Shown here: positions 1,238 to 48,210 of the stretch, piece after piece
Layout of the letters: each line of letters starts with the position of its first letter
Position numbering within the stretch: the first letter of the stretch is position 1
Assembly (NCBI GenBank): GCA_950054485.1
Contig: CATLPD010000002.1
Coordinates: 374,644-438,643 of the forward strand
Length of the DNA stretch: 64,000 nt
Direction: 5' to 3'
Source: an uncultured Alphaproteobacteria bacterium
GTDB lineage: Bacteria; Pseudomonadota; Alphaproteobacteria; Micavibrionales; CSBR16-224
Position numbers and translations under genes: made by a program
Notes under the pieces: generated by a model
Database searches by the model: none
What the model was told of the DNA's origin: nothing
Seen by the model: the letters and a program-made list of their open reading frames with translations, nothing else

Positions 1238-1266
1238 TTGACATAATTGCAGGATTTGTGTATATT
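1238..1266 (+). promoter_or_regulatory. Near-consensus sigma-70 promoter for the paralogue array
   Basis: TTGACA (1238-1243), a 17-bp spacer and TATATT (1261-1266) lie 33 bp before the first ATG of the array. The -35 box is followed by TAAT, as in the promoter at 10623-10651. The region between rpsB and the array (1035-1298) therefore holds two divergent promoters and the rpsB leader, and no gene. Confidence 0.7.
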
Positions 1267-1298: not shown

Positions 1299-2117
1299 AT
1301 GCCCGGAACCGGAGACACAAGATGTGAATTTAGCTGCTGCGCAGACAAGCGTAGGCAGGAATACGAGCCTGAAATTATCGGCGATATTGTTATCCCTACC
1401 CCAACTGCTGAGGATATGGAGTGGAAATACATTCTTGATCAAAGCCGTGAGGAATATAATTTCGACCACTTCGAAACATGGCGTAACGCTAGTGTTTACA
1501 AAGAAACCAACCTTTGGCGCGTTAAATATCTCATTGATAACGGTAAAGAAATCGACAACAACCGTGGAAAAGCACTGTACAACGCAGTCGTTCACGACCA
1601 GCATAATTTGATCCGGCTACTTATTTTGAAAGGCGCGAATGTTAACGTATATTGCGGACAGCACCTTGTGAAATCTGCAATAGATAAAAATAAAAAAGCG
1701 TTTCATAGCTTTTTGAAATTGGGTGCTGATATAAACTTAGCTTTCAAACACGCCAAACCTGACGAGCTTAGAGCTCTCGCTGAAATGACCGGACGCAAAG
1801 CACACTATTGGGAGAAACAAGATGACCAAACCATATTGCGCCGCCATTTCGAACAAGACGGCGACGTAACCTATAAAATCCGAACAGTTTTCAATTTTGA
1901 AAGCCGCAAAATCAAAATATATACCGAACAGGGCAAACACAAGTTCGAGCCCCGTTTTGAAAAATTCAGCGATCAGGAAACCTTGAACGAGATTGACGAG
2001 GCTTACCAGAAACTCCTTGAAATGGACGGCATGCCCACCCCACCCGAAAATTATAATTGTAGATCGCAAAAAGCTGCTCCGTCCGTTAATCCGGTGCTGA
2101 AAGGCCGCGCACCATGA
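1299..2117 (+). CDS. Ankyrin-like hypothetical protein, paralogue A of a tandem array
   Basis: 272 aa, no signal peptide or membrane segment, so probably cytoplasmic. Three parts are visible. An N-terminal motif GDIVIPTPTAEDMEW lies at about 28-42. A helical middle at about 65-160 contains ankyrin-like units (ALYNAVVHDQHNLIRLLILK followed by GANVNV, and FLKLGADINLA). A C-terminal module (about 168-255) has YWEKQDDQTILRRHFE, then TVFNFESRKIKI. The same N-terminal motif and C-terminal module recur in the next two genes. The 3' end overlaps the next ATG by 4 bp (ATGA), so translation is likely coupled. The ribosome site is weak, but the promoter at 1238-1266 is strong. Function unknown; ankyrin-like units suggest protein binding. 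Confidence 0.85.
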   Translation: MPGTGDTRCEFSCCADKRRQEYEPEIIGDIVIPTPTAEDMEWKYILDQSREEYNFDHFETWRNASVYKETNLWRVKYLIDNGKEIDNNRGKALYNAVVHDQHNLIRLLILKGANVNVYCGQHLVKSAIDKNKKAFHSFLKLGADINLAFKHAKPDELRALAEMTGRKAHYWEKQDDQTILRRHFEQDGDVTYKIRTVFNFESRKIKIYTEQGKHKFEPRFEKFSDQETLNEIDEAYQKLLEMDGMPTPPENYNCRSQKAAPSVNPVLKGRAP

Positions 2118-3229
2118 GCAAGAAACAGGATGACGAATTTCTTTTACATTACGCATCTGGCTATAGCGCGTCAGACTGGGATTATAACGATGCCATAAAA
2201 GATGCAGCGGAACACCGTAAAAAAATGGACGCTGATAAAAAAAGCGCCGCTGAACGTGCAAAGGAAGAACAAGAACGCCAGGAAATGTTGGAGCGCCAAC
2301 GCATAGAGCGCGAAAAACGTGCTGCAGAACATCGCCGTAAGGCCGAAGAGCGTCAAAGAAAACGCGAAGAAGAAGCACGCCTAGAAGCCCAACGCAAAGC
2401 GGCAGAAGAGCGTGAAGCCGCCCGATTAGCTGAAGAAGCACGACGCGCCGCTGAGGAAGCCCGCATAAAGGCCGAAAAAGAGTTTAACAGTCCGAAGACG
2501 ATTGGCGATGTGACCGTTCCCTCTCCTACAGACCAAGATAAATTATGGTTCGCGGAAAATCTGGAACGTCCGCATATATCTGCATATCAATGCGACAACA
2601 TGCAAATAACAACTCTGTGGCAATTTCACAAAGTTTTGGAAGATGAGCGGACCAGACCGAAACTGTTGGCGCGTTTATTCTTTCTTGCTGCTCAAGACAG
2701 CGAACTAGAAAAATACAAACTATTAAAACATCACAAATACGATATTGCGCATGATTATAATGCAGCTCTAAGACTCGCCTTTAAAGATAATGATCACAAG
2801 GCTTTTGATAAGCTATTGGAATGGGGCGCAAAATGTGAAAATGCACTTCGTGCACCGGAGCTATCAGATTTTGATAAAATCAAAATGGCCCAATTTGCAG
2901 GTGTAGTTCAATATCATTGGGAAAAGCAGGACGATCAGACAATCCTGCGCCGTCACTATGAAACGGATGAAGAGACCATCCTAACGATACGCACCACATT
3001 CAACTTTAAGAGCAAAAAAATCAAGACCACCACCCTAATTGATAATAATCAATTAGACACATGTTTTGAACGTTTTGATGATCAGCCAACAGATGTCGAG
3101 CTTATGGAAGCGTTCGACAAACTTAAAGCATTAAACGGAAAACCTACTCCAATTGCTGAAATGAAAACCAGCACACTCAAAGGGCTGGGCATCAGTGCAT
3201 TGCCTCGCGGATTTAACCCAAATGACTGA
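2114..3229 (+). CDS. Coiled-coil plus ankyrin-like hypothetical protein, paralogue B
   Basis: 371 aa, cytoplasmic by appearance. Residues about 30-120 are an almost uninterrupted charged coiled coil of Lys/Arg/Glu/Ala (for example RRKAEERQRKREEEARLEAQ), absent from its two neighbours. After it comes the array's motif IGDVTVPSPTDQDKLW (about 130-145), a helical ankyrin-like region (about 170-265) and the shared C-terminal module: YHWEKQDDQTILRRHYE, then TIRTTFNFKSKKIKTTT and a final helix with LMEAFDKLKALNG. It overlaps paralogue A by 4 bp and precedes paralogue C by 10 bp, so the three are one operon. It looks like paralogue A with an inserted or acquired coiled coil. Function unknown. Confidence 0.85.
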   Translation: MSKKQDDEFLLHYASGYSASDWDYNDAIKDAAEHRKKMDADKKSAAERAKEEQERQEMLERQRIEREKRAAEHRRKAEERQRKREEEARLEAQRKAAEEREAARLAEEARRAAEEARIKAEKEFNSPKTIGDVTVPSPTDQDKLWFAENLERPHISAYQCDNMQITTLWQFHKVLEDERTRPKLLARLFFLAAQDSELEKYKLLKHHKYDIAHDYNAALRLAFKDNDHKAFDKLLEWGAKCENALRAPELSDFDKIKMAQFAGVVQYHWEKQDDQTILRRHYETDEETILTIRTTFNFKSKKIKTTTLIDNNQLDTCFERFDDQPTDVELMEAFDKLKALNGKPTPIAEMKTSTLKGLGISALPRGFNPND

Positions 3230-3239
3230 GGAATTGTAA

Positions 3240-4010
3240 ATGTATTACCGCATAACCAAAGTTGATGAAAATATGACAGCGCCGAACGGCGATATCATCC
3301 CTGGCCCGACTAAAGCGGATCGCAAATGGGTGCGTGATTTCGAATGGAATGAATACAAACTGATTGATGCTTGCGGAGAAGGAAATTTATGGCGTATACA
3401 GTTTGCGCTAAGGCGTGAATATTATTTCCCTGACGTCGGGGAAGATTGCATTACCGCAGCTATAGAAAATGACCGCATTGAGGTGTTAAAACTGCTGAAG
3501 TCAAACGATGTGACACTGACTGATTATGATTCAATTGGTAGCCTTCTTGCACTGGCTGTGGAAAGTAAATCCAGCACATGTTTCGAATACATCCTGAGTC
3601 AAAGCGAAGAAAGCATCGAAGAAATTCTTGATAATATGTACTCTGGCGATGCCATGGGTATAAAACTGATGCTGTCTCAACAAGGCGGTGTCTGGAAATC
3701 GGCCACACCGACATCAATCAACCGTTTTGAGTATCACGAAACAATGAAATCTGATGAAATTCGTGAAATCACAACAACCTTTAATTTCAAGGCGCGTAAA
3801 ATCACGACAACTATTCGCGAAAATGACGTATTTGCAGGATTAAGCGAACAAAATTTCAGCGATGCAGAAACGGATGCCGAGATTATCGAGGCCCATGAAA
3901 AATTGAGTGCTTATAATCCTGATCTGCCGGATATCAGCCAGTTTACCAACCGGTCCTTAAAACCAAGGGCTAGCTTGCTTGCACGTCCTCAACCCCGGAA
4001 ACCTTTCTAA
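3240..4010 (+). CDS. Ankyrin-like hypothetical protein, paralogue C
   Basis: 256 aa. It starts at the ATG at 3240, with GAGGA 7 nt upstream. It keeps the array's N-terminal motif in the form NGDIIPGPTKADRKW (about 16-30). Ankyrin-like helices follow (CITAAIENDRIEVLKLLKSN). The C-terminal module is only partly retained: the QDDQTILRRH segment is lost, but ITTTFNFKARKITTTI and the closing helix AEIIEAHEKL remain. The final 13 codons run antisense to the end of dnaE (41-bp tail-to-tail overlap), giving a basic Pro-rich tail. It is the most diverged of the three paralogues. Function unknown. Confidence 0.83.
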   Translation: MYYRITKVDENMTAPNGDIIPGPTKADRKWVRDFEWNEYKLIDACGEGNLWRIQFALRREYYFPDVGEDCITAAIENDRIEVLKLLKSNDVTLTDYDSIGSLLALAVESKSSTCFEYILSQSEESIEEILDNMYSGDAMGIKLMLSQQGGVWKSATPTSINRFEYHETMKSDEIREITTTFNFKARKITTTIRENDVFAGLSEQNFSDAETDAEIIEAHEKLSAYNPDLPDISQFTNRSLKPRASLLARPQPRKPF

Positions 4011-7000
4011 TCAGGCTCAGTTCCTCACTGGTTACGGCGTAACTGCTGGGAAGGCTTATTTCAAGATCACGGCCCTTTGCCTTTAATGCTACAGTAAATT
4101 TAACTTTACCATATGATACGCCGCCCAATATCTCTTTAATATCGGATATGTGTTCTGCATCCGACATAGTAATCATGACCTGCTGGGTTACAAAATCAAC
4201 AGCTTTGCTAAGTGGTTCAAAATGCTGGGCCAAAAATTTGATGTCATCTTCGCCCTGAATCTGAACATCCATTTGCGCGATTACAGTTGAACCTGTTGTA
4301 AGAATTTCACGGCTGGCTGATAATACATCCGAAAAGACCGTTGCTTCGAAAACCCCGGTAGAATCTGACAATTGAACAAAGGCAAAACGGTTGCCTTTAG
4401 CGGATACTTTTTCCTGCTTTTTGGTCACAATCCCTGCCATTTTAATACGGCTGGAGGGCATGGTTTTCAACTTACGCTGGACATCGGCAAAAGATGTCAC
4501 ACCAATGCGTTCCAACTGGGTTTCCATTGAATCTAGCGGATGCGCGGACAGATAAAAACCTACAGCTTTAAATTCTTTTTCAAGCTTTTCCAGTGGCTCG
4601 AAGGGCTGCAAATTAGGTAACGGTGGCTTTGGCAATTCAACTGCCCCGCCTCCAAACAGGCTGTGTTGACCGCTTTCTTTTTCCTGCGCCAACATCGATG
4701 CATATCGCAAAAGGGTTTCGATTGATGCCAGAACTTCAGACCGTTTTTCATTCATGCAATCAAATGCACCAGCCGCCGCCAAAGATTCCATCTGACGTTT
4801 ATTTAAAACCTTGGCATCGCAACGTTGCGCTACATCATATAGGTCTTTAAAAAATCCATTGGCTGTTCTCTCTTCGCACAACGAATGCATCGCGGCCCCG
4901 CCGACCCCTTTTAAGGCGCCCAGAGCATAGCGGATAGATGGCAGATCTTCCTCGACCTGAACGGCAAATTCGACCTCCGATTTATTGATATTCGGCATGA
5001 GCAGCGGAATGCCCATATTGTTTAATTGCTGGCGGAAAAAGGCCAGTTTATCCGTGTTCCCCATATCATAGGTCATCGTCGCGGCCATGAATTCAACAGG
5101 ATAATGCGCTTTTAAATAGGCTGTCTGGTATGCGACCAACGCATAGGCATAAGTATGCGCCTTGTTAAAACCATATCCGGCAAAGGCCGCGATCTGATCG
5201 AAAATAGCAGAGGCCTTCTCTTCTTCCAGCTGATGATTATCGTTAGAGCCTTGAATGAACAATTCACGCTGGGCATCCATTTCTTCTTTAATCTTCTTAC
5301 CCATCGCGCGTCGCAGCAGATCCGCACCGCCAAGGCTGTAACCCGCCAGAACCTGCGCCGCTTTCATGACCTGTTCCTGATAGATCATAACCCCGTATGT
5401 GTCTTTAACGACAGGTTCCAGCAGCGGATGCATGTAATCAAGCTCTTCCTCGCCTTTCTGGCACGCCAGATAACGTGGGATGTTTTCCATGGGCCCAGGA
5501 CGGAACAGCGCGATAATAGCCGCCGCCTCGTCAAAATTTTTAACTTTCATCTGACGGCAAAGGTCTTGCATGCCCGCACTCTCCAACTGGAATACCGCAG
5601 CATTATCAGCGCGGGCCAACATTTTAAATGTGTCCTCGTCATCAATCGGGAATTTCAGCGGATCAAGTTTAACGCCCTGCGTCACCTTGATGGTATCAAT
5701 TGCTTTTTTGATGATCGATAAGGTTTTCAAGCCCAGAAAATCGAACTTTACGAGACCCGCAGGTTCGACAAATTTCATATTAAACTGGGTCGCCGGCATG
5801 TCTGATTTCGGATCTTGATAAAGGGGAACAAGCTCGTCTAGCGGACGGTCCCCGATCACAATACCCGCTGCGTGGGTCGAGGCATGGCGATACAACCCTT
5901 CCAGTTTCAGCGCAATACTGATTAAACGGTCAATAACTTCATCATTTTTACGAGCAGCGCGCAGATCAGGTTCGGTATCCAAGGCTTCCTGTAGAGAAAT
6001 TGGATTGGCCGGATTGCTTGGGATCATCTTGGCGATTTTATCTACATAGCCATAGGATATCTGTAAAACACGCCCAACATCACGAACAACAGCACGCGCC
6101 TGCAGCTTACCAAAGGTAATAATCTGTGCAACACGATCACGACCGTATTTATCTTGTACGTATTTTATGACCTCTTCACGGCGTTCCTGACAGAAATCGA
6201 TATCGAAATCCGGCATGGATACACGTTCAGGGTTCAAAAAGCGCTCGAACAGCAAATCAAACTGTATCGGGTCCAAATCGGTAATCTTCATTACCCAGGC
6301 AACCAGAGATCCCGCACCGGAACCACGCCCCGGACCGACAGGAATATCATGATCCTTGGCCCATTGGATAAAATCCGCAACGATCAGGAAATACCCCGAA
6401 AAACCCATCTTAATTAGGATATCCAGCTCGTATTTCAGTCTCTTCTGATACTTCTTGCGAATATCTTCTTTTTCTTCATCGGTATTATCCGCTGTAAAAA
6501 CATATTTTTCCAAGCGCCACTTTAGCCCGTCTTCGGACTGTTTGATCAGTTCTTCTTCTTCGGTACGTCCCTCGCCCGTATCAAAACGCGGCAGAATGGG
6601 GTCGCGAAACTTCAAAACAAAGGAACACCTTTGCGCAATTTTAACTGTATTTTCAATTGCTTCAGGCAAATCCTTAAACAACTCCACCATTTCCTCGGGA
6701 GATTTGAAGTAGTGTTCGGCTGTAACTTTGGGCCTGTCTTCTTCAATCACATAGCGCCCGCCCGCAATACACAGTAAGGCATCATGCGCCTGATACATAT
6801 CGCGCGTCGTGAAATAACAGTTATTCGTCGCCACGATTGGAATATTCTTGTCATAGGCCAGATCAAGAAAGCCGTCCTCAATCGTAGTTTCATCGAGTGA
6901 GCCATGGCGTAACAGCTCGATATAAAGACGGTCACCAAAAAACTTATGCAGACGATCACAAATCTCCGAAGCGTCCTGTTTTCTGCCTTCACGTAGGTAT

Positions 7001-7446
7001 CGGCCGATTGCTCCTTTTGGTCCGCCAGTCAGGCAGATCAGTCCTTCGTGGTATTTTTCCAATTGTTCCCATGTGATATGGGTCGGGTTCTCCTGCCCGC
7101 TTTCACAGAAGGCCATACTCGCAAGCTTAAGCAGGTTCTGATAACCCGTCTGGTTTTGCACCAGCAATACCAGTTGGTCAGGATCATCCATTGTCACACT
7201 GCCGGGGGTGCTTTCTTCGGGTCTAGCAATTGCCATCTGAGTCCCGATAATCGGCTGAATTCCGGCTTCGGCAGCTTTGCTGGAAAATTCAAGCGCTCCA
7301 AAAAGGTTGCTGGTATCGGTTACAGCCACAGCAGGCATATCAAAAGCCTGCGTTTTTTTCAGCAGGTCTTTAATCTTGATAGCACCTTCCGCCAGTGAAT
7401 AGGCGGAATGGACGCGAAGATGAACGAATTGAGACGGCATAAGCAT
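3970..7446 (-). CDS. dnaE: DNA polymerase III alpha subunit
   Basis: Replicative polymerase, 1158 aa, the usual size for proteobacterial DnaE. An N-terminal PHP domain begins at FVHLRVHSAYSLAEGAI. The polymerase palm carries VGPGRGSGAGSLVAW (about 370-384) and the catalytic Asp motif SMPDFDIDF (about 410-418). An OB-fold at about 980-1060 includes IKMAGIVTKKQEKVSAKG. ATGs at 7446 and 7440 are both possible; the second (MPSQFVHL) matches the family start better, but neither has a clear Shine-Dalgarno. It sits between two groups of plus-strand accessory genes: its 3' end overlaps paralogue C, and its 5' end is divergent from the gene at 7546. Confidence 0.97.
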   Translation of the reverse strand: MLMPSQFVHLRVHSAYSLAEGAIKIKDLLKKTQAFDMPAVAVTDTSNLFGALEFSSKAAEAGIQPIIGTQMAIARPEESTPGSVTMDDPDQLVLLVQNQTGYQNLLKLASMAFCESGQENPTHITWEQLEKYHEGLICLTGGPKGAIGRYLREGRKQDASEICDRLHKFFGDRLYIELLRHGSLDETTIEDGFLDLAYDKNIPIVATNNCYFTTRDMYQAHDALLCIAGGRYVIEEDRPKVTAEHYFKSPEEMVELFKDLPEAIENTVKIAQRCSFVLKFRDPILPRFDTGEGRTEEEELIKQSEDGLKWRLEKYVFTADNTDEEKEDIRKKYQKRLKYELDILIKMGFSGYFLIVADFIQWAKDHDIPVGPGRGSGAGSLVAWVMKITDLDPIQFDLLFERFLNPERVSMPDFDIDFCQERREEVIKYVQDKYGRDRVAQIITFGKLQARAVVRDVGRVLQISYGYVDKIAKMIPSNPANPISLQEALDTEPDLRAARKNDEVIDRLISIALKLEGLYRHASTHAAGIVIGDRPLDELVPLYQDPKSDMPATQFNMKFVEPAGLVKFDFLGLKTLSIIKKAIDTIKVTQGVKLDPLKFPIDDEDTFKMLARADNAAVFQLESAGMQDLCRQMKVKNFDEAAAIIALFRPGPMENIPRYLACQKGEEELDYMHPLLEPVVKDTYGVMIYQEQVMKAAQVLAGYSLGGADLLRRAMGKKIKEEMDAQRELFIQGSNDNHQLEEEKASAIFDQIAAFAGYGFNKAHTYAYALVAYQTAYLKAHYPVEFMAATMTYDMGNTDKLAFFRQQLNNMGIPLLMPNINKSEVEFAVQVEEDLPSIRYALGALKGVGGAAMHSLCEERTANGFFKDLYDVAQRCDAKVLNKRQMESLAAAGAFDCMNEKRSEVLASIETLLRYASMLAQEKESGQHSLFGGGAVELPKPPLPNLQPFEPLEKLEKEFKAVGFYLSAHPLDSMETQLERIGVTSFADVQRKLKTMPSSRIKMAGIVTKKQEKVSAKGNRFAFVQLSDSTGVFEATVFSDVLSASREILTTGSTVIAQMDVQIQGEDDIKFLAQHFEPLSKAVDFVTQQVMITMSDAEHISDIKEILGGVSYGKVKFTVALKAKGRDLEISLPSSYAVTSEELSLIRKVSGVEDVQAS

Positions 7447-7545: not shown

Positions 7546-8097
7546 ATGGTAGTTATGGGTAAAATAAAAGACGATTTGCATACCAGTTTAAAAAAACACT
7601 TTGATGATACGGTGTTAGAGCAACGTCTTGAGTATACTCACAAGTACAAAGCGGTTATCCAAAGACTGCAAGAACAGCTTGAAGTTTTAAAATCGGCTGG
7701 GCTCTCTAACATTTCGATATCGCCTTTAAAGCTTAAGGAAAAGACACGTATTAAGATGCCCCAGAAACATTGGAACGATTTACAACTGGTTTTGGAAATT
7801 CACGATCGCCAATATCTGCTGTTTCTGCTGGATAACGATAAAATCTATATGCATAACGGGGTTATAAACAAGCATGAAAGCTTTTTTACGCAGGTTGGAC
7901 CGACACCGGATCAGGAAACAGACGGTATAGTCTACAACCTGTCGGACAAAGAATCTTGTGAAGACTTTCTAAAAGGCATTGCAACGACCGCAGCCCATTG
8001 CGTTGCCGAACAAACATTTTATGAAGAAACCGGCCTTTCCACGCCTCAACCCATGTCGCGCAAAAACGGGCCTACCCTTTCAGCTAGAAAGCCTTAA
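7546..8097 (+). CDS. Hypothetical protein, first of a probable paralogous pair
   Basis: 183 aa, soluble, no recognised family. The start has GAGG 8 nt upstream; the in-frame ATG at 7555 is an alternative. A basic/acidic N-terminal helix runs to about residue 35. An amphipathic helix (YKAVIQRLQEQLEVLKSAG) follows, then alternating beta strands (LQLVLEIHDRQYLLFLLDND) and a C-terminal helix (FLKGIATTAAHCVAEQTFYE). A disordered tail ends in GPTLSARKP. The next gene, 5 bp downstream, has the same order of elements, suggesting ancient duplication. Not related in sequence to the array at 1299-4010. Function unknown. Confidence 0.8.
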   Translation: MVVMGKIKDDLHTSLKKHFDDTVLEQRLEYTHKYKAVIQRLQEQLEVLKSAGLSNISISPLKLKEKTRIKMPQKHWNDLQLVLEIHDRQYLLFLLDNDKIYMHNGVINKHESFFTQVGPTPDQETDGIVYNLSDKESCEDFLKGIATTAAHCVAEQTFYEETGLSTPQPMSRKNGPTLSARKP

Positions 8098-8102
8098 ATC
8101 GA

Positions 8103-8624
8103 ATGAACGACAAAGACTTCAAAAAAAAATTTAAAGACGCCCAGGCTTCATACGTCGTCGGGGGACGATGCGCATCTGTCATCCAAAACCTAAGCCGCAT
8201 TATAGATCAATGTCAAAAGAACGGCATGGACGTTAAGCTGAAAACCATAGGACGTGCGCATGGCGAGGGCTTTTCCTATATTTCATCAGGCTCGGTCGAC
8301 CTGACCGGCATTATTCAAATTTTCGACAATGAATTTATGTTTGTGCACAAAGTGAAAGACAATGAGGAAGCCTGCTCGCAACTATATCTGGCAAAACTGG
8401 ATACACGCTTTAAGACGGCTGGAGAAAACAGGGCTTACTCCTATGATATTGACGAATATGGTCAAAAAGCCTATGACGCGCTTACTGAAAGAATTATTGA
8501 TATCTATGTCACCCTTGAAGCGTACTACAAAAACGACGTTTGCAACGTGCTGGAATACCAACCGACAGCGCCCTTAGAATCAAAAAAGACGGGCCGCAGC
8601 CTCTACCCTACAGGTCGGCCTTAA
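8103..8624 (+). CDS. Hypothetical protein, second of a probable paralogous pair
   Basis: 173 aa, soluble, no recognised family. Predicted elements parallel the preceding gene: a charged N-terminal helix, a helix with SVIQNLSRIIDQCQKNGMDV, strands (LTGIIQIFDNEFMFVHKVKD), and a C-terminal helix (AYDALTERIIDIYVTLEAYY). A basic tail ends in GRSLYPTGRP. It begins 5 bp after the 7546 gene stops, so the two are probably co-transcribed. The last 17 bp overlap the 3' end of lolD on the opposite strand. The Shine-Dalgarno is weak. Function unknown. Confidence 0.8.
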   Translation: MNDKDFKKKFKDAQASYVVGGRCASVIQNLSRIIDQCQKNGMDVKLKTIGRAHGEGFSYISSGSVDLTGIIQIFDNEFMFVHKVKDNEEACSQLYLAKLDTRFKTAGENRAYSYDIDEYGQKAYDALTERIIDIYVTLEAYYKNDVCNVLEYQPTAPLESKKTGRSLYPTGRP

Positions 8625-46863: not shown

Positions 46864-48210
46864 TTGAGCAAAAAACCTTTTTTCAAGCGACGCGTTTTAA
46901 TCGCTGCGATTGTGGCTGTACTGGTTGTCAGTAGCCTTACGGTTTCGTATGCCCAACGCGGTAACAGAGGTGGCAACGGCACACTTAACTTGCCACAACC
47001 TAACGTCAACGCTGTATTAAGCCACTTAGGCATTCCAAACCCGTTAAATTGGACACGCGATGTTCTGGGGCTCGGGTTTGCACAGAATTTCCAGGGCGGA
47101 CAACAGCTTGTTCAAAACCTAATACAAAACTGGCTAGATGTTTTACTGCCCGGAAAAAAGGACCGCGCCGCACAATTGAATACAGCACAAATGGACCGGG
47201 CCCGCAATTACGGCAGCGGTATTAACGCACAAAATATTGATGAATATCAACTGAATACCGAACTAAACGAAATTGAACAAGTGTCAGGCGGCATTTCTGA
47301 AACAGCTTGCCAGATTGCTACCGGTATTACCGGTAGCAGCGGCTCTGGCGGTGGCAGCAACGGCGGCGCTGGCGGTGGTAACGGAACAGGCCAAGGCGGG
47401 TTATCCAGCGGCTTTCAGATCTCAGGTGCAATCACACGCGCCCTTGGCGAACAAATGAACAAAGTTGGCCTTAACAGTGAAGGATCACCATCTGAATTCG
47501 GTCCTACATCGGATTACGGCGAAAGATATAAAATTTACTCACAACATTTTTGCGACCCCTCCATGAATGGCGGACAAGCCGGCTGTAACCCGCAGGGCCC
47601 CCAATTACCAAATGCTGACATCAGCGTCGAAAGCTTTCTTTTAAAAGACACTATCGATATGGATAAAATGGAAGAAAAACTGGCAACCGAGGCTATCCTT
47701 AGAAACTTGGTCGTTCCAAATGTCGGCCAGCCTATTTCAGAGCAGGCGTTTGGTGGCTATGGCGGAAAAAACGGTATGCTGAAAAAGCGTCAATTGCTTG
47801 CATTGCGTAATATGCCAGTTGCAGCCGTTTCCAACATCATTGGCCGCCGCACAGCCATTCCAGACTCAAACGTATCAGATACCATTCGCCCGATCCGTGA
47901 GCGCGCGGGGGTTGAACCGACCCAAATTTCGGACAAAGCAAGTTTTAACGAGATCATGCTTGCCCTGACAAAAGAGCGTTTTTACGATTCAAACTATTTC
48001 CTGACAGTCAGTCAATCGACACTGGATCAGGTGGCGCAGGAGCAAATGGGTATTGATGTATTAACACAAATTACTTTACGCCAAATCCACACGCTACAGG
48101 AACAAATCAACGGCCTGATGGCGGCGCGTGCCAGCATCAAACACAATAACGATAGTTACAGTAACGCCTCGCTAAGATATGGTGGCGTTTCAGGCACATC
48201 ATCACCATAA
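46864..48210 (+). CDS. Exported Gly-rich hypothetical protein
   Basis: 448 aa. The start is TTG at 46864, with GAGGG 7 nt upstream; the nearer ATG at 46850 reads into a stop after five codons. An N-terminal signal/anchor (about 10-30, RVLIAAIVAVLVVSSLTVSY) is followed by a helical region. A Gly/Ser linker (about 155-180: GSSGSGGGSNGGAGGGNG) follows, then a helical C-terminal half with DTIDMDKMEEKLATEAILRN and EQINGLMAARASIKHNN. It resembles the general layout of exported components of conjugative or type IV machinery, but I recognise no specific family. Confidence 0.75.
   Translation: MSKKPFFKRRVLIAAIVAVLVVSSLTVSYAQRGNRGGNGTLNLPQPNVNAVLSHLGIPNPLNWTRDVLGLGFAQNFQGGQQLVQNLIQNWLDVLLPGKKDRAAQLNTAQMDRARNYGSGINAQNIDEYQLNTELNEIEQVSGGISETACQIATGITGSSGSGGGSNGGAGGGNGTGQGGLSSGFQISGAITRALGEQMNKVGLNSEGSPSEFGPTSDYGERYKIYSQHFCDPSMNGGQAGCNPQGPQLPNADISVESFLLKDTIDMDKMEEKLATEAILRNLVVPNVGQPISEQAFGGYGGKNGMLKKRQLLALRNMPVAAVSNIIGRRTAIPDSNVSDTIRPIRERAGVEPTQISDKASFNEIMLALTKERFYDSNYFLTVSQSTLDQVAQEQMGIDVLTQITLRQIHTLQEQINGLMAARASIKHNNDSYSNASLRYGGVSGTSSP

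What the first reader, a model, noticed from the sequence alone, without database searches (positions are those of the whole stretch)
1299..4010. Tandem array of three paralogues sharing a two-part signature and a variable ankyrin-like middle
Seen: all three genes carry an N-terminal motif of the form (I/N)GD(I/V)...P.PT..D..W and a C-terminal module ending in T.FNF..(R/K)KI, followed by a helix with A..KL. Two also carry WEKQDDQTILRRH. The middle is helical with ankyrin-like units, and only gene B has a ~90-residue coiled coil. Overlaps of 4 bp and a gap of 10 bp show one operon under a near-consensus promoter. Inference: a locally duplicated, diversifying family whose conserved ends form a new domain and whose middle binds variable partners. 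I recognise no named family.
Basis: partly seen in the sequence, partly recalled or inferred. Interest (0 to 1): 0.7.

Follow-up and report, generated by a model that had tools for sequence, protein, structure and literature searches.

The report
Ankyrin proteins with undescribed C-terminal domain
Three neighbouring genes belong to a large, fast-diversifying protein family of Micavibrio-related bacteria in which a variable ankyrin-type binding part is always joined to the same small, undescribed end domain, which makes it a good candidate for a set of adaptor or effector proteins whose job is still unknown.

Summary
Genes A, B and C are homologous (A-B E=1e-29, A-C 1e-10, B-C 3e-10). They end in the same ~80-residue domain, here called CTD. 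AlphaFold2 predicts it with confidence as five antiparallel strands plus a helix. It matches no Pfam, NCBIfam, PHROGs or PDB entry by sequence, and Foldseek finds nothing at E<=0.001. The own genome carries 17 CTD copies. In 55 genomes of the order (Micavibrionales, judged from named hits), CTD is in 7/7 genomes of the window's family and 15/16 of a second family (up to 41 copies), and in none of the other 32; the fuller order scan adds three genomes of a third family. It was absent from nearly 800 other genomes sampled in class and phylum. In 142 members CTD sits at most 35 residues from the C-terminus, followed by a basic, proline-rich tail; the only partner domain found is ankyrin. One correction: B's insert is an ER/K-type single helix, not a coiled coil. 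Best reading: modular adaptors, a common C-terminal dock plus a variable ankyrin-type binder. No VirB4, VipA or T3SS ATPase was found in the window's family, so delivery to prey or host is unproven.

The parts
1238..1266 (+). sigma-70-type promoter-like site, TTGACA-N17-TATATT
   Evidence: 11 of 12 matches; about 32 nt upstream of the start of A
1299..2117 (+). gene A, 272 aa: N-terminal hairpin with IP.PT..D..W motif, helical ankyrin-like middle, C-terminal domain (CTD), basic tail
1797..2054 (+). CTD of gene A (aa ~167-252)
   Evidence: strands 169-222, helix 230-241; retrieved by a profile built without any sequence of this genome at 9e-9
2114..3229 (+). gene B, 371 aa: as A, with an extra N-terminal highly charged helix
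2198..2491 (+). ER/K single-alpha-helix type insert of gene B (aa 29-126)
   Evidence: found in no other of 142 members
2906..3163 (+). CTD of gene B
   Evidence: homologous to A over 227 aa at 1e-29
3240..4010 (+). gene C, 256 aa; its 3' end overlaps convergent dnaE (3970-7446, - strand) by 41 bp
   Evidence: Ank_2 0.008
3681..3935 (+). CTD of gene C
   Evidence: independent profile 2.7e-5, BLASTP to A and B about 1e-10

Best explanation
A, B and C are members of a lineage-specific family of modular adaptor proteins. Each has a variable alpha-solenoid of ankyrin type, which by analogy binds a different target protein, and one invariant small domain (five antiparallel strands plus a helix) that sits at the C-terminus and is followed by a short basic, proline-rich tail. 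The most likely mechanism is that the C-terminal domain and tail dock every member to the same partner or site (a shared cellular machine, a membrane or assembly site, or an exporter), while the ankyrin part brings or blocks a different target. The paralogues multiply by tandem duplication and dispersal, and the binding part changes faster than the dock. Shown: homology, the separate C-terminal domain, its terminal position, its restriction, the ankyrin link, the faster-changing N-terminal part, tandem duplication. Inferred: binding, docking, and where in or outside the cell they act.
For: CTD is at most 35 aa from the C-terminus in all 142-143 distinct members used (median 21) with a tail charge of +2.8 against +0.14 in 49 control genes of the window (p=2e-10) and 2.6 against 0.9 prolines. 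The only other Pfam matches in 140 members are ankyrin models (103 by Ank_2). CTD identity 63% against 50% for the N-terminal part, p=1e-12. CTD and ankyrin counts rise together across 55 genomes (rho 0.87 overall; 0.64 within the two families). CTD exists on its own in ORFs of 97-112 aa, two of them in this genome, and one such form is kept between two genera (clade 100/94), so the domain has a role without the ankyrin part. AF2 of A shows three parts with CTD at pLDDT about 95; an independent relative gives the same strand order.
Against: No partner, location or phenotype is known. About a quarter of members show no Pfam ankyrin match, and the middle parts of B and C are barely ankyrin-like by sequence. 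A function in which the ankyrin part is only structural is not excluded.
Confidence: 0.55

Rival explanations
1. They are exported effectors acting on a prey bacterium or a eukaryotic host, with the CTD plus basic tail as the export signal, as ankyrin effectors of intracellular bacteria are exported through C-terminal signals.
For: Strict C-terminal position and basic tail; massive ankyrin expansion in the same two families; Orientia ankyrin proteins are type I substrates recognised by their last 60 residues (PMC4315096); a cultured Micavibrio has type I and II but no type III or IV secretion (PMC3189940).
Against: VirB4 is absent from all seven genomes of the window's family, T6SS VipA from all 55, and no T3SS ATPase reaches its cut-off in any. 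Type I type ABC exporters are everywhere, so they do not discriminate. The LDAVTSIF make-up of the last 60 residues is no higher than in window controls (50.3% against 50.4%). Standalone CTDs have no cargo.
Confidence: 0.3
2. They are intracellular regulators or scaffolds (for example of cell shape, division or a predation organ) with no contact with another organism.
For: No member inspected shows an obvious N-terminal signal peptide (reading of the sequences, not a predictor run); no known injection machine in the window's family; standalone CTDs suggest homo- or hetero-oligomer partners.
Against: Copy number up to 41 and rapid divergence are unusual for housekeeping scaffolds; the family is absent from most related families that share the basic cell plan.
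Confidence: 0.3
3. They are components of antiviral defence or a mobile element.
For: Some ankyrin stretches match PADLOC model PDC-M72A and NCBIfam MzaA.
Against: Those matches cover essentially the ankyrin part only. No CTD relative in 2.9 million viral contigs or 72,556 plasmids; neighbours are housekeeping genes that differ from locus to locus.
Confidence: 0.05
4. Ordinary decaying ankyrin genes with a chance-conserved end.
For: The middle parts of A, B and C are strongly diverged.
Against: Intact frames, 11 of 13 synonymous codon changes under an identical 13-residue peptide, order-wide conservation of CTD.
Confidence: 0.02

Closest known systems
Orientia tsutsugamushi ankyrin (Ank) protein family
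   Same: Many diverse ankyrin paralogues in one alphaproteobacterial genome; the C-terminal 60 residues act as type I secretion signals for 19 of 20 Anks (PMC4315096).
   Different: Known (own knowledge) for F-box/PRANC-like helical C-terminal motifs, whereas this CTD is a beta sheet plus helix. No export shown here; the T1SS residue make-up is not enriched.
Poxvirus ANK/PRANC proteins (own knowledge)
   Same: Same architecture logic: variable ankyrin repeats plus a small constant C-terminal docking domain, in large paralogue sets.
   Different: The constant domain is F-box-like and helical; no sequence or fold relation found.
Legionella/Coxiella Dot/Icm ankyrin effectors (AnkH, AnkY, AnkG)
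   Same: NCBIfam models of these match the ankyrin stretches of relatives.
   Different: Matches stop before the CTD; no VirB4-type T4SS in the window's family, and the Dot/Icm machine itself was not searched.
Pfam Ank_2 / Ank repeats (PF12796)
   Same: 103 of 140 members match.
   Different: No Pfam family covers the CTD.
PUR-alpha repeat and other small sheet-plus-helix folds
   Same: Strands followed by a helix; a PUR-alpha repeat III structure appears far down the Foldseek list of A.
   Different: E about 1 and low probability; no fold match at E<=0.001.

Membership tests
Ankyrin-repeat proteins (Pfam PF12796 and relatives) | significant match to ankyrin models | tested here: met
   Family-wide: 103 of 140 members. 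For the window: A 2.8e-5 but below the curated cut-off, C 0.008, B none; B is homologous to A.
Ankyrin-repeat proteins (Pfam PF12796 and relatives) | stacked helix-turn-helix pairs | tested here: met
   Predicted for A between residues 57 and 164; Foldseek partial matches to DARPins, ASB7 and Ankyrin-1 with probability 0.94-1.0 but E above 0.02.
Orientia/poxvirus type Ank with F-box/PRANC | C-terminal F-box-like helical domain | tested here: not met
   CTD is predicted as five strands plus one helix; no Pfam match shared by CTD members.
Type IV (Dot/Icm, VirB) effectors | a T4SS in the same genome | tested here: not met
   VirB4 (PF03135) absent in all 7 genomes of the window's family; Dot/Icm-specific parts not searched.
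Type VI effectors | T6SS sheath protein in the genome | tested here: not met
   PF05591 absent in 55 of 55 genomes.
Type III effectors | T3SS ATPase over the curated cut-off | tested here: not met
   0 of 55 over cut-off; the single sub-threshold hit per genome fits a flagellar ATPase, which also rings in the E. coli and B. subtilis controls.
Type I secretion substrates | C-terminal signal recognised by an ABC exporter | not testable with these tools
   Exporter-like ABC proteins exist in all genomes; composition signature not enriched; needs a secretion assay.
CTD family (this work) | ~80-residue W...FNF...F...A...L..GG domain within about 35 residues of the C-terminus | tested here: met
   A, B, C all match; a profile without this genome finds A (9e-9) and C (2.7e-5), while one aminopeptidase is a false hit at 1.1e-4.

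The most novel reading that the evidence does not exclude
The CTD is a new export or docking module that lets a predatory or host-dependent alphaproteobacterial lineage with no detected type III, VirB-type or type VI injection machine deploy dozens of ankyrin proteins against prey or host through one shared route.
Probability: 0.2. Interest if true: 0.8.

Novelty: new variant of a known kind. Interest (0 to 1): 0.5.

Why it matters
Large ankyrin repertoires usually mark intimate contact with another cell. Here such a repertoire, with its own undescribed constant end domain, appears in two families of an order whose cultured members feed on other bacteria, and is missing from most of the other families. 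If the end domain proves to be a common dock or export tag, it gives a handle for finding a whole hidden set of interaction proteins in uncultured Micavibrio relatives and for asking how they reach their targets without a known injection machine.

Tried and rejected
T4SS, T6SS and T3SS effector readings: machinery not found in the window's family. T1SS residue signature: not enriched; exporter search not discriminating. Defence or mobile-element reading: no viral or plasmid relatives, housekeeping neighbours. Coiled-coil reading of B: replaced by ER/K single helix. Known fold for the CTD: none at E<=0.001 in PDB or BFVD. A marginal CTD hit in another order (G390, E=2.3e-4, 1380-aa frame) was not accepted, because an aminopeptidase scores 1.1e-4 with a related profile. 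An alignment of all 68 CTDs was too diverse for the pattern scan of named genomes, so a 17-sequence subset was used.

Full report
What is there. The window lies in contig C2 of a 2.28 Mb genome. Genes A (1299-2117), B (2114-3229) and C (3240-4010) lie on the + strand between rpsB and dnaE, both on the - strand and identified by reading the translations; C overlaps the 3' end of dnaE by 41 bp. The spacing, and a promoter-like site TTGACA-17-TATATT about 32 nt upstream of A, fit one operon. BLASTP among the three gives A-B 1e-29, A-C 1e-10, B-C 3e-10. The 13-residue peptide shared by A and B is encoded with 11 of 13 codons changed, so it is kept by selection and is not a recent copy.

The domain. 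Searching the own genome with a profile and growing it over relatives isolates a ~80-residue C-terminal domain (CTD): a W, an lteiFNF..R strand, a conserved F, then a helix with A...L..GG, then a short tail. It lies near the C-terminus of the ORFs examined: 143 distinct C-termini, of which 142 could be used as full sequences; median 21 and at most 35 residues from the end; the last 20 residues carry +2.8 net charge and 2.6 prolines, against +0.14 and 0.94 in 49 control genes of the window (part of the set was filtered at 35 residues, and only two weak or overlapping cases fell outside). A profile built only from other genomes retrieves A at 9e-9, C at 2.7e-5 and nine further own-genome members from 342 ORFs, and nothing from shuffled ORFs; one aminopeptidase is a false hit at 1.1e-4. 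B is tied in by its similarity to A.

Structure. AlphaFold2 gives for a relative's CTD five antiparallel strands and a helix, mean pLDDT 84 and about 92 in the core. For full-length A it gives an N-terminal hairpin, paired helices, and the same strand-and-helix order at about 95. The CTD has no PDB or viral fold match at E<=0.001, and no Pfam, NCBIfam, PHROGs or PDB sequence match. The helical part of A finds DARPins and ankyrin structures, though only at E above 0.02. B and C were not modelled, for lack of jobs.

Distribution. In 55 genomes of the order the CTD is in 7 of 7 genomes of the window's family (6-21 copies, 17 in this genome) and 15 of 16 of a second family (2-41), and in 0 of 32 others. 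A fuller scan of 142 genomes adds three genomes of a third family with five copies each. Class and phylum samples of 384 and 397 other genomes give one marginal hit and none; viral contigs and plasmids give none. The same two families hold the order's ankyrin expansion (Ank_2 counts 5-95 against 0-6 elsewhere; the tool scored about 76 candidates per genome, so high counts are lower bounds), and the two counts rise together. The own genome is unusual in having 17 CTDs but only 11 Ank_2 matches: its solenoids have drifted from the ankyrin consensus.

Evolution. Nearest pairs are 63% identical in the CTD and 50% before it. Tandem neighbours often cluster in the CTD tree, A with B at 100/93; the place of C is unresolved. 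CTDs alone, in ORFs of 97-112 residues, exist, and one form is shared by two genera. B's extra 98 residues are an ER/K single-helix type found in no other member.

How it may work. Established for ankyrin proteins in general: the solenoid binds proteins. Inferred: the constant terminal domain docks all members to one partner or site. Export is a serious rival, because of the terminal position, the basic tail and the Orientia precedent; it is weakened by the lack of VirB4, VipA and T3SS ATPases in the window's family, the unenriched T1SS residue make-up and the existence of cargo-less CTDs. An intracellular role is equally open.

Verdict. A real, undescribed domain family with a clean architecture and a sharp taxonomic limit; mechanism inferred only.

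Noticed in passing
window 7546-8097 and 8103-8624, + strand: Two adjacent small genes between dnaE and lolD without any Pfam match; both end in basic, proline-containing tails (LSARKP, LYPTGRP) like the ankyrin-CTD proteins, but lack the CTD. They share only a 13-residue weak match with each other.
   Followed up: partly
window 3970-4010: Gene C and dnaE converge and overlap by 41 bp within both coding sequences.
   Followed up: no
55 relatives of the genome: Two families of the order carry 11-95 or more Ank_2 matches per genome in nearly all members, while the other families have 0-6; most of these ankyrin genes lack the CTD.
   Followed up: partly
L056:4409-4747 and L056:4722-5051 (own genome C1, about 96.9-97.5 kb): Two overlapping genes that consist of little more than the CTD (112 and 109 aa).
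   Followed up: partly
window 46864-48210, + strand: A 448-aa protein with a signal-like N-terminus and glycine-rich stretches, without a Pfam match.
   Followed up: no
L118:527-2284 and relatives in several loci: A recurrent neighbour family (up to 586 aa, charged helical N-terminus) near some CTD genes; its copies are diverse.
   Followed up: no
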